From: Corynebacterium tuberculostearicum
Lineage (GTDB): Bacteria; Actinomycetota; Actinomycetes; Mycobacteriales; Mycobacteriaceae
Direction: 5' to 3'
Length of the DNA stretch: 64,000 nucleotides
Assembly: GCF_016894265.1 (NCBI RefSeq)
Contig: NZ_CP069791.1
Coordinates: 186,001-250,000 of the forward strand
Shown here in pieces: positions 6,674 through 56,830 of this stretch (positions are counted from its first letter, which is position 1; each line of letters opens with the position of its first letter). The translations under genes and the position numbers were made by a program. The notes beneath the pieces were generated by a model, which saw only the letters and a list, made by a program, of their open reading frames with translations, ran no database searches and was not told the DNA's origin.

Positions 6674-7978
6674 ATGACCAGCCTGATGTGGTTCCGCGAT
6701 GACCTGCGCCTGCACGATAACCAGGCCCTTTCCCGCGCGGCCGAGGCCGCCTCGCTTGGCGACGTCCCCTTGGTCGCCGTCGTCCTCGACGAGCCTGCCT
6801 ATCCCGGCACCCGCCCGCTGGGCGGCGCGACCACGTGGTGGCGCGAACGTTCCCTCTATGCCCTCGCCCGCGACCTTGCCGACCACGGTGTAGAACTCAT
6901 TCGCGCCGCCGGCGATGCCCGCACGGAAATCCCCCGCCTGGCCGCAGAACTGGGCGCCACCACCGTCACGTGGACCCGCCGCTACCACGGCCCCTTGCGC
7001 GAGGTCGATGCGAGCGTCAAGGAAACCCTAACCTCCCAGGGCATTACCGCCACCTCCTCGCCCGGCTTCACCCTTGTCGAACCCTGGGAGGTCACCAATG
7101 GCCAGGGCCAGCCCTATAAGGTCTTTACTCCCTTCTCCAAGGCCGCCGCCTCCCAGGTGGCGGGAGATGAACCGGAGGGGGTGCCGGAGATGGGGGCGTC
7201 GGCAAGCAGTGCATCTGCCTGGCCCAAACCCACCGAACCGGCATGGGCCGCATCCCTGGCCGAGCACTGGACGCCCGGCGAGGCCGGCGCGCGCGAGCGA
7301 CTAGCCCAGCTGGACCTGGCCAACTACGCCGAGGAGCGCGATATCCCCGCGCTCAATGCCACCTCCCTACTCTCGCCCCACCTGCGCTTTGGCGAGGTCT
7401 CCCCGCGCGAGGTGTGGTTCGCGGCGGCCGAGGAGCCCGAAGCCGCCAAGTTCCACTCCGAGCTGCTGTGGCGCGACTTTGCCTGGCACCGCCTCTACCA
7501 CCTGCCCAATCTCGCCACCGAGAACGTGCGGGAGAAATTCGACCGCTTCGACTGGTCCTGGGATGACCCGCGGCTCAAGGACTGGCAGGCCGGCACTACC
7601 GGAATTCCGCTTGTCGACGCCGGAATGCGCGAGCTATGGGCCACCGGGTACATGCACAACCGCGTGCGCATGGTGGTGGGCTCCTTCCTCACCAAGAACC
7701 TGGGCATCCACTGGCGCCTGGGCGAGGAATGGTTCTGGGACACCTTGGTGGACGCCGATGCCGCCTCCAACCCGTTTAATTGGCAGTGGGTGGCCGGCTG
7801 CGGCGATGACGCCGCGCCCTTCTTCCGCATCTTCAACCCCGAAACGCAGGCCAAACGCTTCGACCCCGACGGCGAGTACGTGCGCCGCTGGGCACCCGCG
7901 CTGTCTGCCCCACCCATCGTCGACCTGAAGGAATCGCGCCAAGCCGCGCTCGATGCCTATGCGGAGATCAAGGATTAA
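6674..7978 (+). CDS. phr: Deoxyribodipyrimidine photolyase, class I
   Basis: Light-dependent repair enzyme that splits cyclobutane pyrimidine dimers using FADH-. The 434-residue protein has the N-terminal antenna domain (SLMWFRDDLRLHDNQAL at the start) and the C-terminal FAD domain with LLWRDFAWHRLYHLP, MRELWATGYMHNRVRMVVGSF, and the hallmark WFWDTLVDADAASNPFNWQW followed by GCGDDAAPFFRIFNP. Tryptophans of the electron-transfer chain are present. The upstream open frame extends to 6545 but lacks family similarity there. It is a single gene between the rplJ leader and the SbnA-like operon. Confidence 0.95.
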   Translation: MTSLMWFRDDLRLHDNQALSRAAEAASLGDVPLVAVVLDEPAYPGTRPLGGATTWWRERSLYALARDLADHGVELIRAAGDARTEIPRLAAELGATTVTWTRRYHGPLREVDASVKETLTSQGITATSSPGFTLVEPWEVTNGQGQPYKVFTPFSKAAASQVAGDEPEGVPEMGASASSASAWPKPTEPAWAASLAEHWTPGEAGARERLAQLDLANYAEERDIPALNATSLLSPHLRFGEVSPREVWFAAAEEPEAAKFHSELLWRDFAWHRLYHLPNLATENVREKFDRFDWSWDDPRLKDWQAGTTGIPLVDAGMRELWATGYMHNRVRMVVGSFLTKNLGIHWRLGEEWFWDTLVDADAASNPFNWQWVAGCGDDAAPFFRIFNPETQAKRFDPDGEYVRRWAPALSAPPIVDLKESRQAALDAYAEIKD

Positions 7979-8006
7979 GCCGGCGGAAAAGGTGGACGCA
8001 AAGGTC

Positions 8007-8012
8007 TACCAT
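8007..8012 (+). promoter_or_regulatory. -10 box of the SbnA-like operon, leaderless type
   Basis: TACCAT, 7 nt, then ATG at 8020. The earlier in-frame ATG at 8011 lies inside this box, so 8020 is the more likely start of a leaderless transcript for the three-gene operon. Confidence 0.5.
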
Positions 8013-8019
8013 GGGGCCA

Positions 8020-9027
8020 ATGATGAGCCCCAGGATTCATTCTCAAGCGCACCCGCCCATTGGCAATACCCCACTCATGCGAGTGGAGGCGATTAGTCCC
8101 CGGCCGGATGTCCACCTCTATCTCAAACTCGAACAATTCAACCTCGGCGGTTCTGCAAAAGACCGGACGGCACGAGCACTGATCCAGGCGGCGCTTGCAG
8201 CCGGCGATATCCGTCCTGGTTCGACGCTGGTGGAATCTTCCTCCGGCAACCTGGGCATGGCTCTAGCTCGCCAAGCCCCGCTACAAGGCATGAAGTTCCA
8301 TTGCGTGGTGGATCCGCGGGTCAACGCCTCCACGGTGGCTACCATGCGGGCCTACGGCGCACACGTGGAATTGCTCGACCACCCCGATCCAGAAACCGGC
8401 GATTGGCTCACCGCCCGCCGCACCCGCGTGGCCGAGCTTTTGGAAGAGATCCCCGATTCTTTCAACCTCAACCAGTATTCCAATGAAGCCGCCTTCCACG
8501 CCCACGCGGAAGGCACCATGACGGAGATTGTGGACCAGCTCGGCCAGGCCCCTAGCCATCTACTCGTGGCTATGAGCACCACCGGAACCCTTGGCGGCTG
8601 CGTACGCAAGCTCTCCGAGCTGGGCGCCGATACCCACACAATCGGCGTTGATGCGGAAGGCTCCGTGCTTTTTGGTGGTGAGCGCGGTACCCGCATGCTG
8701 CCCGGCTACGGCGCAGGTATCGTGACCGAGCTATCCACCAAGTTTTCGCCTTCTTCCGTGGAGAGGGTTCCAGATCTCGATGCCATCGTTGCCGCCCGAC
8801 AACTCGCCCAAGCAGAGGGCCTGCTGCCTGGCGCTTCCGGCGGTGCCGTCATCGCCGCCTTCCAGAGCCTCGCACCCTCCCTACCGGCAGGGGCCGAAGT
8901 GGTTGCCGTGCTGCACGACGCCGGCCAGCCTTACCTGGACACCATTTATAACGACTCCTGGGTGTGCGAAAACTTTGACATTTCGCCCGCTGAACTTGCC
9001 GCGCGCATCGAAGGGTCAGCGCAGTGA
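8020..9027 (+). CDS. SbnA-like PLP enzyme (cysteine synthase fold)
   Basis: A PLP-dependent beta-replacement enzyme of about 335 residues. It resembles SbnA of staphyloferrin B synthesis, which joins O-phospho-L-serine and glutamate on the way to L-2,3-diaminopropionate, more than ordinary CysK. Lys47 in GGSAKDRTA is the PLP lysine; ESSSGNLGMALA, STTGTLGG and PGASGGAV are cofactor and substrate loops. SbnA-type blocks CVVDPRVN, NQYSNEAAFHAH and VDAEGSVLFGG are present. It starts a tight operon: its stop overlaps the next start by 4 nt (ATGA). Substrates are inferred from SbnA. In rhizobia a similar cysteine synthase-like gene (y4xP) adjoins y4yA, as I recall that locus. Confidence 0.8.
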   Translation: MMSPRIHSQAHPPIGNTPLMRVEAISPRPDVHLYLKLEQFNLGGSAKDRTARALIQAALAAGDIRPGSTLVESSSGNLGMALARQAPLQGMKFHCVVDPRVNASTVATMRAYGAHVELLDHPDPETGDWLTARRTRVAELLEEIPDSFNLNQYSNEAAFHAHAEGTMTEIVDQLGQAPSHLLVAMSTTGTLGGCVRKLSELGADTHTIGVDAEGSVLFGGERGTRMLPGYGAGIVTELSTKFSPSSVERVPDLDAIVAARQLAQAEGLLPGASGGAVIAAFQSLAPSLPAGAEVVAVLHDAGQPYLDTIYNDSWVCENFDISPAELAARIEGSAQ

Positions 9028-55667: not shown

Positions 55668-55755
55668 ATTCTCCTCACAAGGACGGCGGCGGTCGAAACC
55701 ATTACTATGGACACGTTAGTCCACCCCGCGTTTGCGAAAGCTGTTTGTCTCACTC

Positions 55756-56793
55756 GTGTCCGCTACCACTCCCCCAGGGTTCCCCGAATCCCCCCGCGAC
55801 TTCTTGGCCAATTGGACCGCCTCGCGCGGTAACCTGCGTAATTTCTTGGAGACCCAAGCGCTCGCCCCGCTGGACGAGGAATCGCAGCGCACCGCCGGTG
55901 AAGCCGCGGCGGCTGCGGCGCTGGAGGAGTTCGGGCTGGAGTTGGAGGACTTTGCTTCCGGCGTGGACTCGGTCACCGGCTCCTATGACGCGGCCGGTGC
56001 GCAGCGCATCACCGCCCAGGACCCAGACGTACCGGTGGATGTGGGCGCGGCAGCGTTTTTCGACGTCGATAACACCCTCATCCAAGGCTCTTCCCTCGTG
56101 GAATTCGCCTTTGGCTTGGCGCGCAAGCGCTACTTCCGGCTTTCTGAAATCCTGCCGATAGCGTGGAAGCAGCTCAAGTTCCGCGTCTCCGGCAGCGAAA
56201 ATGCCAAGGACGTGGCCGTGGGCCGCGCGCAGGCACTGGAGTTTGTCAAAGGCCGCAGCGTCGACGAGCTGGTGGATTTGTGCGAGGAAATCGTGGACGC
56301 CTCGCTGGCCCGCCGCGCCTACCCCGGCACCACGCAGCTGGCGGAGATGCACCTAGCCGCCGGCCAGCAGGTGTGGCTGGTCACCGCCACCCCGGTCCAG
56401 CTGGCACAGGTGCTCGCCCGGCGCTTCGGGTTTACAGGCGCGCTCGGCACCGTCGCGGAGGTCAAGGACGGCAAGTTCACCGGACGACTGGTCGGCGATA
56501 TCCTCCACGGGCCCGGCAAGAAGCACGCCGTGGCCGCGCTCGCGACCATCGAGGGCCTCGATCTCTCGCGCTGCACCGCATACTCGGATTCGGCCAACGA
56601 TGTGCCGATGCTGTCCATGGTCGGCACCGCCGTGGCCATTAACCCAGACCGCAAGCTGCGCGATATCGCTGGCGACCGCGGCTGGCTCGTGCGCGACTAT
56701 CGCTCCGTGCGCCGCGCCATCCGCACCTATGGCCTCCCGGCGCTGGCCACCGCCGCCTTCTCCTATGGCGGCTGGCGCTACTATCGGCGGTAG
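55756..56793 (+). CDS. HAD-IB family phosphatase (SerB1-like)
   Basis: A HAD-superfamily subclass IB hydrolase of about 345 residues. The nucleophile motif AAFFDVDNTLIQGSSL is near residue 100; LVTATPVQLAQVLA is motif II, KKHAVAALA supplies the motif III lysine, and AYSDSANDVPML is motif IV. The N-terminal 95 residues are not HAD-like. The C terminus is basic with a possible membrane segment. The start is uncertain: GTG 55756 (SATTPPGF) or TTG 55732. Rv0505c (serB1) lies at the same place in M. tuberculosis, but the substrate is not established here. Confidence 0.85.
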   Translation: MSATTPPGFPESPRDFLANWTASRGNLRNFLETQALAPLDEESQRTAGEAAAAAALEEFGLELEDFASGVDSVTGSYDAAGAQRITAQDPDVPVDVGAAAFFDVDNTLIQGSSLVEFAFGLARKRYFRLSEILPIAWKQLKFRVSGSENAKDVAVGRAQALEFVKGRSVDELVDLCEEIVDASLARRAYPGTTQLAEMHLAAGQQVWLVTATPVQLAQVLARRFGFTGALGTVAEVKDGKFTGRLVGDILHGPGKKHAVAALATIEGLDLSRCTAYSDSANDVPMLSMVGTAVAINPDRKLRDIAGDRGWLVRDYRSVRRAIRTYGLPALATAAFSYGGWRYYRR

Positions 56794-56819
56794 CGAGGGC
56801 GGGAGCGGGCGCTGGGGGA

Positions 56820-56830
56820 CGTCGGCAAGC
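56820..56830 (-). repeat. Intergenic copy of the iterated 11-mer GCTTGCCGACG
   Basis: One of 16 exact copies in the window. Forward copies start at 15483, 17892, 21452, 30357, 33145, 40656, 43622, 45552 and 48614; reverse-complement copies start at 7197, 24809, 27963, 31607, 37180, 42729 and 56820. Most continue with a pyrimidine-rich tract close to [TCA]CC[CA]CC. This copy lies 27 bp after a stop codon, outside any gene. Confidence 0.8.

What the first reader, a model, noticed from the sequence alone, without database searches (positions are those of the whole stretch)
7197..56830. Iterated 11-mer GCTTGCCGACG, 16 exact copies in 64 kb
Sixteen exact copies (9 forward, 7 reverse) are spread through the window, in genes of both strands and in two non-coding sites (15483, 56820). 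A rough estimate from base composition gives well under one expected. Relaxed forms GCTTGTCGACG (2534, 7609, and reversed at 22415, 51348, 58493) and GCTTATCGACG (10154, 34751, 38140, and reversed at 33427, 48911, 53941) add more. Many copies continue as [TCA]CC[CA]CC. In genes it often encodes Leu-Ala-Asp with the uncommon codon CTT, or reads as the antisense. Balanced orientation argues against a replichore-polar signal. It resembles uptake sequences, a nucleoid-protein site or a modification-protected site.
Basis: seen in the sequence. Interest (0 to 1): 0.72.

Follow-up and report, generated by a model that had tools for sequence, protein, structure and literature searches.

The report
Corynebacterium's dialect-bearing DNA self-tag
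Most of the Corynebacterium chromosomes examined carry hundreds to about two thousand copies of a short tag followed by a one-sided C-rich stretch, and related species spell it differently; it looks like a DNA uptake tag by which cells recognise kindred DNA, of a kind I know only from two Gram-negative families.

Summary
The 16 exact 11-mers are one spelling of a split motif, GCTTNNCGACG: 41 copies in the window, 915 in the genome, which is close to C. tuberculostearicum. It is followed on one side only by about 40 nt of C-rich, G-poor DNA. Markov and codon-shuffled nulls do not explain it. Of 201 genomes of the genus, 139 hold 280-1,964 copies and 62 hold 8-134; none of 120 genomes of other genera exceeds 1.64 times its reversed control. 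Ten of the 62, and one genome with both spellings, hold 625-1,337 copies of a one-base dialect, GCTTNNCGATG. Where sites of two such genomes align, about half are the same site with base 10 switched. Copies are strand-balanced in both replichores, more conserved than flanks, and depleted in seven plasmids (8 found, 84 expected; 7 of the 8 in one plasmid). ComEA, ComEC and Tad/Flp pilus genes are present. Best reading: an uptake-sequence system for natural transformation, the first I know of outside Neisseriaceae and Pasteurellaceae. Function is inferred; the receptor is not identified, and the machinery is also present where the motif is absent.

The parts
152..162 (-). GCTTTTCGACG, no tail skew (0.0)
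2534..2544 (+). GCTTGTCGACG, tail +0.24
6754..6764 (+). GCTTGGCGACG, tail +0.33
7197..7207 (-). exact 11-mer; tail (C-G)/(C+G) +0.66 in the 40 nt after it on its strand
7609..7619 (+). GCTTGTCGACG, no tail skew (-0.04)
10154..10164 (+). GCTTATCGACG, tail +0.66
13567..13577 (-). GCTTAACGACG, tail +0.26
15483..15493 (+). exact 11-mer between tRNA genes, tail +0.33
17892..17902 (+). exact 11-mer, tail +0.39
21452..21462 (+). exact 11-mer, antisense in ORF 21279-22931(-), tail +0.23
22415..22425 (-). GCTTGTCGACG, tail +0.29
24809..24819 (-). exact 11-mer, tail +0.73
27963..27973 (-). exact 11-mer, tail +0.35
28635..28645 (+). GCTTCGCGACG, tail +0.26
30357..30367 (+). exact 11-mer, tail +0.45
31607..31617 (-). 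exact 11-mer, tail +0.48
33145..33155 (+). exact 11-mer, tail +0.63
33427..33437 (-). GCTTATCGACG, tail +0.03
34751..34761 (+). GCTTATCGACG, tail +0.20
37180..37190 (-). exact 11-mer, tail +0.45
38140..38150 (+). GCTTATCGACG, tail +0.42
39362..39372 (-). GCTTTTCGACG, tail +0.44
39863..39873 (-). GCTTTTCGACG, tail +0.47
40656..40666 (+). exact 11-mer, antisense in ORF 40066-40869(-), tail +0.63
42729..42739 (-). exact 11-mer, tail +0.20
43622..43632 (+). exact 11-mer, tail +0.59
45552..45562 (+). exact 11-mer, tail +0.57
48614..48624 (+). exact 11-mer, tail +0.64
48911..48921 (-). GCTTATCGACG, tail +0.48
49979..49989 (-). GCTTTCCGACG, tail +0.52
50777..50787 (-). GCTTAACGACG, tail +0.39
51348..51358 (-). 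GCTTGTCGACG, tail +0.35
52722..52732 (-). GCTTCTCGACG, tail +0.15
53941..53951 (-). GCTTATCGACG, tail +0.41
54125..54135 (+). GCTTTCCGACG, tail +0.28
54604..54614 (-). GCTTTCCGACG, tail +0.44
55580..55590 (+). GCTTGACGACG, no tail skew (0.0)
56820..56830 (-). exact 11-mer, begins 27 bp after the end of ORF 55732-56793, tail +0.47
58493..58503 (-). GCTTGTCGACG, not in a called ORF, tail +0.12
60862..60872 (+). GCTTTACGACG, tail +0.21
63059..63069 (-). GCTTAACGACG, tail +0.05

Best explanation
GCTTNNCGACG plus the ~40-nt C-rich stretch 3' of it (about 51 nt) is a DNA uptake sequence of Corynebacterium. Shown: the motif, its tail, the dialects, the conservation, the depletion in the plasmids looked at, and the presence of ComEA, ComEC and Tad/Flp genes. 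Inferred: a surface or membrane DNA receptor of the competence apparatus (candidates: the helix-hairpin-helix domain of ComEA, or a small Tad pilin) binds the tag; the one-sided C-rich tail helps capture or bending; tagged fragments are taken in through ComEC and recombined. Because tagged alleles are imported more often than untagged ones, tags accumulate everywhere they cost little, mostly through synonymous codons. When the receptor's specificity changes, the spelling of the same sites is replaced across the genome, which gives the GACG and GATG dialects and a barrier to exchange between species.
For: Over-representation against Markov, codon-shuffle and reversed-pattern controls. Split core with a free NN; single mismatches at the nine fixed positions of the commonest spelling total 44 against 31.9 expected, while the core itself is 61 against 1.6. 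One-sided tail in G000: (C-G)/(C+G) +0.41, +0.47, +0.31, +0.23 in successive 10-nt bins, then +0.06 and 0.00; upstream at most +0.06; also present at antisense sites, so not codon usage. Confined to the genus in what I searched: 139 of 201 genomes with 280-1,964 copies; of 120 genomes of other genera none exceeds 1.64 times its reversed control. A one-base dialect in 11 of 201 genomes (625-1,337 copies; the next highest is 213), with the same tail in G006. Of 43 alignable G000 sites, 21 are GATG and 6 GACG in G006; of 50 alignable G006 sites, 22 are GACG and 4 GATG in G000. At least 3 dialect changes on a ComEC+HolA tree. In the tuberculostearicum complex fixed positions are 98.1% identical against about 89% in flanks over 640 pairs; third-codon-phase tail positions 0.89 against 0.81 and 0.83. 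Seven plasmids: 8 copies in 223.7 kb, 84 expected. Strand-balanced in both replichores, 34/37 and 54/67; counts per 5 kb slightly even, variance/mean 0.57-0.93 in 5 genomes. ComEC in 200 of 201; T2SSE-family ATPase in 198 of 201, 195 over the cut-off; Tad genes and ComEA in the loci inspected. In the actinobacterium Micrococcus luteus tad genes are required for transformation (PMC4322843, passages read). Neisserial DUS also come as dialects, one genome bearing two (PMC3630211, abstract and section 6), and are atypically distributed in mobile elements (PMC7371117, abstract).
Against: No test of uptake was possible, and the listings of my searches showed no paper about natural transformation in Corynebacterium (those papers were not read for it). 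ComEC, ComEA and Tad genes are equally present in motif-lacking genomes, so machinery does not predict the motif; 52 of 201 genomes have neither dialect. No receptor found: the ComEA Ala-to-Ser match (11 of 11 usable GATG rows, 3 of 61 GACG) rests on 2-3 independent switches and cannot reach significance. The tail varies: in G056 it is weak and ends after about 20 nt, in G168 weak, in G016 about 30 nt. Its extra conservation is seen in two of four clades only. Inverted tag pairs as terminators, common with DUS and USS, are not a feature. pTP10 alone holds 7 copies, and plasmids have lower G+C (0.52-0.59) than the G000 sample (0.60), which may explain part of the depletion. The evenness of spacing was not tested for significance.
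Confidence: 0.72

Rival explanations
1. A Chi-like self-label read by a recombination nuclease such as AdnAB: the enzyme, moving 3' to 5' on this strand, meets the C-rich tail and then the motif and switches from degradation to recombination.
For: Such a label would also be chromosome-specific and could differ between species. PDDEXK_1 (PF12705), which AdnAB carries, is found in 21 of 21 genomes searched; G000 among others has two frames of about 1,060 codons side by side, AdnAB-like by my reading. A one-sided tail would fit a directional enzyme.
Against: RecC is absent from all 201 genomes. PF12705 is also in the 8 genomes of genera without the motif in that search. Strands are balanced in each replichore, unlike Chi in E. 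coli (recalled). Whole-genome dialect replacement is hard to drive by weak selection on about a thousand repair sites. That AdnAB is Chi-blind in mycobacteria is recalled, not looked up.
Confidence: 0.12
2. A site for a nucleoid or chromosome-organising protein, spaced along the chromosome.
For: Slightly even spacing and balanced strands, long conserved site.
Against: Nothing in such a role demands a directional C-rich tail, depletion in plasmids or en-masse dialect switching at the same sites. Many genomes of the genus do without it.
Confidence: 0.07
3. A transcription signal, for example a Rho-utilisation element (C-rich, G-poor RNA) with a 5' recognition box.
For: The tail has the C>G composition of rut RNA (recalled property; composition).
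Against: About two thirds lie in the sense direction inside called ORFs, under a third antisense, few outside. No reason for plasmid depletion or dialects.
Confidence: 0.03
4. A modification site or protection mark of a restriction or other defence system.
For: A sharp, split recognition sequence with a free spacer and depletion in plasmids.
Against: Type I sites have longer spacers (recalled); methylation does not ask for a C-rich tail; a mark that protects by modification gives no reason to accumulate sites or to replace them in place.
Confidence: 0.04

Closest known systems
DUS of Neisseriaceae (read by the minor pilin ComP)
   Same: Short, sharply over-represented, dialects differing by single bases, one genome with two dialects, atypical in mobile elements (PMC3630211 abstract and section 6, PMC7371117 abstract).
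   Different: Gram-positive host with a Tad/Flp pilus rather than type IVa; split core with a free NN; long one-sided C-rich tail; no inverted-pair terminators; ComP homologues not searched for; uptake untested.
USS of Pasteurellaceae (Haemophilus type AAGTGCGGT)
   Same: A core followed on one side by a pyrimidine-rich tail (USS tail recalled).
   Different: Tail here is C-rich and up to about 40 nt; core unrelated; terminators of paired copies not seen.
Chi sites (RecBCD/AddAB)
   Same: Over-represented, species-specific sequence (recalled for Chi).
   Different: Not replichore-polar; no RecC in the 201 genomes; nine fixed bases plus tail.
HIP1 of cyanobacteria
   Same: Highly iterated short motif through genes (recalled).
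   Different: HIP1 is a palindrome (recalled); this motif is asymmetric and has a directional tail.
KOPS/FtsK-orienting sequences
   Same: Many copies spread through the chromosome (recalled).
   Different: KOPS are polar from ori to dif (recalled); here 34/37 and 54/67 by strand.

Membership tests
DNA uptake sequence (DUS/USS) | Strong chromosomal over-representation beyond composition and codon usage | tested here: met
DNA uptake sequence (DUS/USS) | Both strands, no replichore polarity | tested here: met
   34/37 and 54/67 in G000; per-genome strand totals about equal in motif-bearing genomes
DNA uptake sequence (DUS/USS) | Related species use dialects, usually one per genome | tested here: met
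   G142 has both, as one Neisseriaceae genome does
DNA uptake sequence (DUS/USS) | Depleted in mobile DNA | tested here: met
   7 of the 32 Corynebacterium plasmid records matched: 8 copies against 84 expected, 7 of them in pTP10; one acquired-looking 20-kb stretch with 1 site; phages not tested
DNA uptake sequence (DUS/USS) | Genome encodes a DNA-uptake apparatus | tested here: met
   but equally present where the motif is absent
DNA uptake sequence (DUS/USS) | Presence of motif tracks presence or specificity of a receptor | tested here: inconclusive
   ComEA Ala/Ser and TadZ Gln/Glu follow the dialect only within few independent switches
DNA uptake sequence (DUS/USS) | Motif promotes uptake or transformation | not testable with these tools
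   needs living cells
DNA uptake sequence (DUS/USS) | Inverted pairs serve as terminators (common, not universal) | tested here: not met
   spacings under 120 bp are 3 of 170 in G000 (2 opposite) and 9 of 155 in G006 (3 opposite); not a defining requirement
Chi (RecBCD type) | RecBCD present | tested here: not met
   PF04257 in 0 of 201; control found in E. coli
Chi (any) | Polarity with replication | tested here: not met
Chi (AdnAB type) | Motif alters nuclease activity | not testable with these tools
   PF12705 genes present in 21 of 21
Modification/restriction site | Motif is modified in vivo | not testable with these tools
   no methylation data available
Rho utilisation or terminator | Placed at transcript ends, one orientation to genes | tested here: not met
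   by ORF position only; no transcript data

The most novel reading that the evidence does not exclude
A Gram-positive, mycolic-acid-bearing genus uses sequence-gated DNA exchange: a roughly 51-nt signal (split core plus directional C-rich tail), read by ComEA's helix-hairpin-helix or by a Tad minor pilin, with at least two and perhaps three or four dialects that act as mating barriers among skin and airway commensals and whose replacement can be watched at the same genomic sites.
Probability: 0.6. Interest if true: 0.93.

Novelty: new variant of a known kind. Interest (0 to 1): 0.86.

Why it matters
Uptake sequences are known to me only from two Gram-negative families, where DNA must cross an outer membrane. 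One in Corynebacterium would mean an independent origin, with a new architecture and probably a new receptor, and would predict natural transformation in a genus of skin and airway commensals and opportunists where my search listings showed none reported. The dialect pair GACG/GATG in sister clades (C. tuberculostearicum against C. macginleyi and KPL1814-like strains), with the same sites re-spelled, makes the open question of how uptake sequences accumulate and switch directly testable. Practically, the motif marks native DNA, flags acquired segments, and may suggest how to design DNA for genetics in hard-to-transform harmless species.

Tried and rejected
RecBCD-Chi: rejected, RecC absent. 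KOPS-like polarity: rejected. ComEC or TadA presence as predictor of the motif: rejected, nearly universal. ComEC length: open frames of 640 codons or more in 47% of 36 motif-poor and 10% of 90 motif-rich genomes among those listed (classes by exact 11-mer count), many exceptions, probably phylogeny. Terminator pairs: not a feature. TadZ Gln/Glu as dialect determinant: GATG 11 of 11 Glu, GACG 19 of 22 Gln, 2 Glu, 1 Asp; most GATG genomes look related, so not used. A homologous phage for one gene of the site-poor stretch: only weak hits. Conservation control patterns: one gave no sites; the other gave 6 sites, all fully conserved (30 pairs), too few to use. Other dialects in G014, G151 and G162: none clear. 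Prior report: PMC5217627 finds spaced motifs in Corynebacterium, but only CRISPR-derived ones in the passages read. Exact-string search: 131 papers hold a string, 20 listed; the titles of those 20 concern unrelated subjects. Phages beyond, protein-structure prediction and the viral contig collection were not used.

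
Full report
Observation. The window is G000:C1:186001-250000 of a 2,433,864-bp single-contig genome with 300 exact copies (157 + 143) against 1 for the reversed pattern. Nulls: dinucleotide shuffles mean 0.12; window Markov order 3-6: 0.11, 0.30, 0.51, 1.65; synonymous-codon shuffles of 408 predicted ORFs: 56 observed against mean 2.97, largest 9 of 200. 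The ORFs come from a simple caller of mine and include some shadow ORFs.

What the motif is. In 464 kb of this genome (window plus 20 stretches) 15 of the 16 GCTTNNCGACG spellings occur and each of those 15 exceeds expectation: 181 together against 9.2 by an order-5 Markov model, 8 for the reversed pattern. The 27 single changes at the nine fixed positions of the commonest spelling total 44 against 31.9 expected, with the largest excess at position 3 (11 against 3.1) and six C-to-T changes at position 10 against 2.4. In the main reading frame it is CTT NNC GAC G (Leu-X-Asp), so the preference for NN = GC probably reflects amino-acid use (inference).

The tail. In G000, after the motif and on the motif strand only, C rises to 46-52% and G falls to 19% over the first 20 nt; the excess fades to nothing by about 40-50 nt. 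Other genomes profiled differ: G016 keeps it for about 30 nt, G168 shows a weaker one, and in G056 it is weak and ends after about 20 nt, with some excess just upstream as well. In sense sites it sits mainly on third codon positions; it is also there in 126 antisense sites pooled from six genomes, so it is a strand-specific DNA feature and not codon usage. Sites with the other dialect's spelling keep the tail (31 GATG sites in G000, skew +0.28; 21 GACG sites in G006, +0.32), as relics would; GATG is itself mildly over codon-shuffled expectation in G000 (31 against 11.9). Variants at positions 1 and 2 keep the tail largely, those at 3, 8 and 9 do not, those at 4 and 7 mostly weakly (several classes have fewer than 10 sites).

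Distribution. 201 genomes of the genus: 139 hold 280-1,964 copies, 62 hold 8-134. Among 120 genomes of other genera of the order none exceeds 1.64 times its own reversed control, against 16.6 for G000. Record titles identify the genus as Corynebacterium; the closest ComEC is 98% identical, from C. tuberculostearicum SK141. Of 80 named ComEC loci (the best 80 of 197; 13.7-21.4 kb), 52 classify as GACG by my thresholds, 3 more as GACG-rich mixed (C. tuberculostearicum FDAARGOS_993, C. curieae, strain ACRPO), 7 as GATG, 18 as low.

Dialects. Motif-poor G006, a near relative, has GCTTNNCGATG instead: 177 in 440 kb against 12.7 (product expectation), reversed 1, with the same tail. Genome-wide the GATG spelling has 625-1,337 copies in 11 of 201 genomes, the next highest being 213; 10 of these are among the 62, and G142 carries both (1,337 GATG, 352 GACG). 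So 149 of 201 genomes have at least one of the two dialects and 52 have neither. On a ComEC+HolA tree of 99 rows the GATG label needs 4 changes, at least 3 by starred branches, rows of neither dialect counted as non-GATG; 3 when only the two dialects are counted. The C. macginleyi/KPL1814 clade is nested among GACG species. Of 43 alignable GACG sites of G000, 21 are GATG in G006, 6 are unchanged and 16 are not a site; of 50 alignable GATG sites of G006, 22 are GACG, 4 GATG and 24 not a site in G000; flank identity is 0.78. A third candidate, T-rich then TCGACGCCAC plus a shorter C-rich tail, shows in G015. By count of that 10-mer in 58 genomes: G015 301, G010 218, G134 181, G147 130, G033 127; the others 5-97, and the 97 is a GACG genome of high G+C (G168), so lower counts may be background. 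Whether it belongs to the same system is unproven.

Behaviour. Strands are balanced in each half defined by the sign of GC skew, 34/37 and 54/67. Counts per 5 kb have variance/mean 0.57-0.93 in five genomes, mildly even, without a significance test. Spacings under 120 bp are 3 of 170 in G000 and 9 of 155 in G006, few of them inverted. In nine loci of the tuberculostearicum complex the nine fixed positions are on average 98.1% identical over 640 pairs against about 89% in flanks, and third-phase tail positions 0.89 against 0.81 and 0.83 either side. In the other three clades the mean of the fixed positions also exceeds the flanks (0.990 against 0.947/0.934; 0.865 against 0.794/0.836; 0.902 against 0.854/0.829), though position 4 does not in the mucifaciens and aurimucosum clades; the third-phase tail excess recurs in the aurimucosum clade (0.79 against 0.74/0.72) but not in the accolens/macginleyi or mucifaciens clades. 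The control patterns gave too few sites to use.

Mobile DNA. Seven plasmids of motif-bearing species (223,703 bp; chosen among 32 Corynebacterium records matched) hold 8 copies where the G000 density predicts 84; the reversed pattern gives 4. Seven of the 8 are in C. striatum pTP10, five of them in a block with pyrD-like and mshC genes that looks chromosomal (inference) and two in tetAB; the other six plasmids hold 1 together. The host strains' own chromosomes were not checked. The poorest G000 stretch (1,520,001-1,540,000, 1 site) encodes a type ISP restriction-modification enzyme, an IS-type integrase and an AAA_13 protein beside ordinary genes, an acquired region in part by appearance.

Machinery. 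ComEC (PF03772) in 200 of 201, T2SSE-family ATPase in 198 of 201, 195 over the cut-off. G000 has TadZ, A, B, C, an Flp-like pilin, TadE-like and TadG-like genes and comEA-comEC-holA. In 20 Tad loci TadA, B, C, Flp, TadE and TadG all matched in 19, some partially; in G039 TadE did not match and TadG only at E 0.31. In 21 com loci ComEA and ComEC matched in all, regardless of motif. Thus machinery is necessary at most. RecC is absent from all 201.

Receptor. Among ComEA columns the best dialect match is an Ala in the helix-hairpin-helix domain (49 of 61 GACG) that is Ser in 11 of 11 usable GATG rows and 3 of 61 GACG rows; one GATG row (C. phoceense) gave only an unalignable fragment and was left out. 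Over random choices of independent pairs it goes the same way in 1.9 of 2 starred pairs, which cannot reach significance. ComEA resembles solved ComEA structures 8dss and 8dfk by sequence. This is a lead only.

Mechanism. The most economical account is an uptake sequence maintained by biased import: dialect replacement at the same sites, depletion in plasmids, synonymous accommodation and a directional composite site are what DUS/USS systems show or would predict. PMC3630211 (abstract and section 6 read) describes eight neisserial dialects and one genome with two; PMC7371117 (abstract read) uses atypical DUS distribution to find mobile elements; PMC4322843 (passages read) shows tad genes are required for transformation in M. 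luteus and by my term search mentions neither Corynebacterium nor an uptake sequence in its main text; PMC6370729 (passages read) describes DUS specificity for Neisseria only in the passages shown. I found no report of this motif in the listings, which cover an open-licence library only.

Limits.

Noticed in passing
G142 (genome-wide; locus L116): Carries both dialects, 1,337 GATG and 352 GACG: a recent switch, or two specificities at once.
   Followed up: no
G132 (L112, L129, L170-L172): GCTCNNCGACG 33 against 7.5 expected in 100 kb: possibly a further dialect.
   Followed up: no
G015 (L041-L044, L157-L166), G010, G147: T-rich stretch then TCGACGCCACC and a C-rich tail of about 25 nt, 301 copies of the 10-mer in G015.
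   Followed up: partly
L030 (G000:C1:1520001-1540000): Tag-poor stretch with a type ISP restriction-modification enzyme, an integrase and an AAA_13 protein with weak similarity to a phage 'translation-disabling ACNase'.
   Followed up: partly
ComEC of many Corynebacterium, e.g. L026:12555-13964: ComEC is short (about 470 aa) in this lineage and about 650-750 aa in the motif-poor genomes G010, G030, G146 and G127.
   Followed up: partly
samples of G098, G016, G151: Locally enriched 11-mers (GGAACATCCCC 13, GGAACCGACCA 19, CCGCGCACGCG 20 copies) look like CRISPR repeats.
   Followed up: no
G015 sample: AGTTATCCACA 13 against 0.2 expected, resembling DnaA boxes, and TTCACGTGAAA, resembling parS (names recalled).
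   Followed up: no
L277 (pTP10) 9.7-13.1 kb: The tag-richest part of the seven plasmids holds chromosome-type genes; tag density may help source plasmid segments.
   Followed up: no
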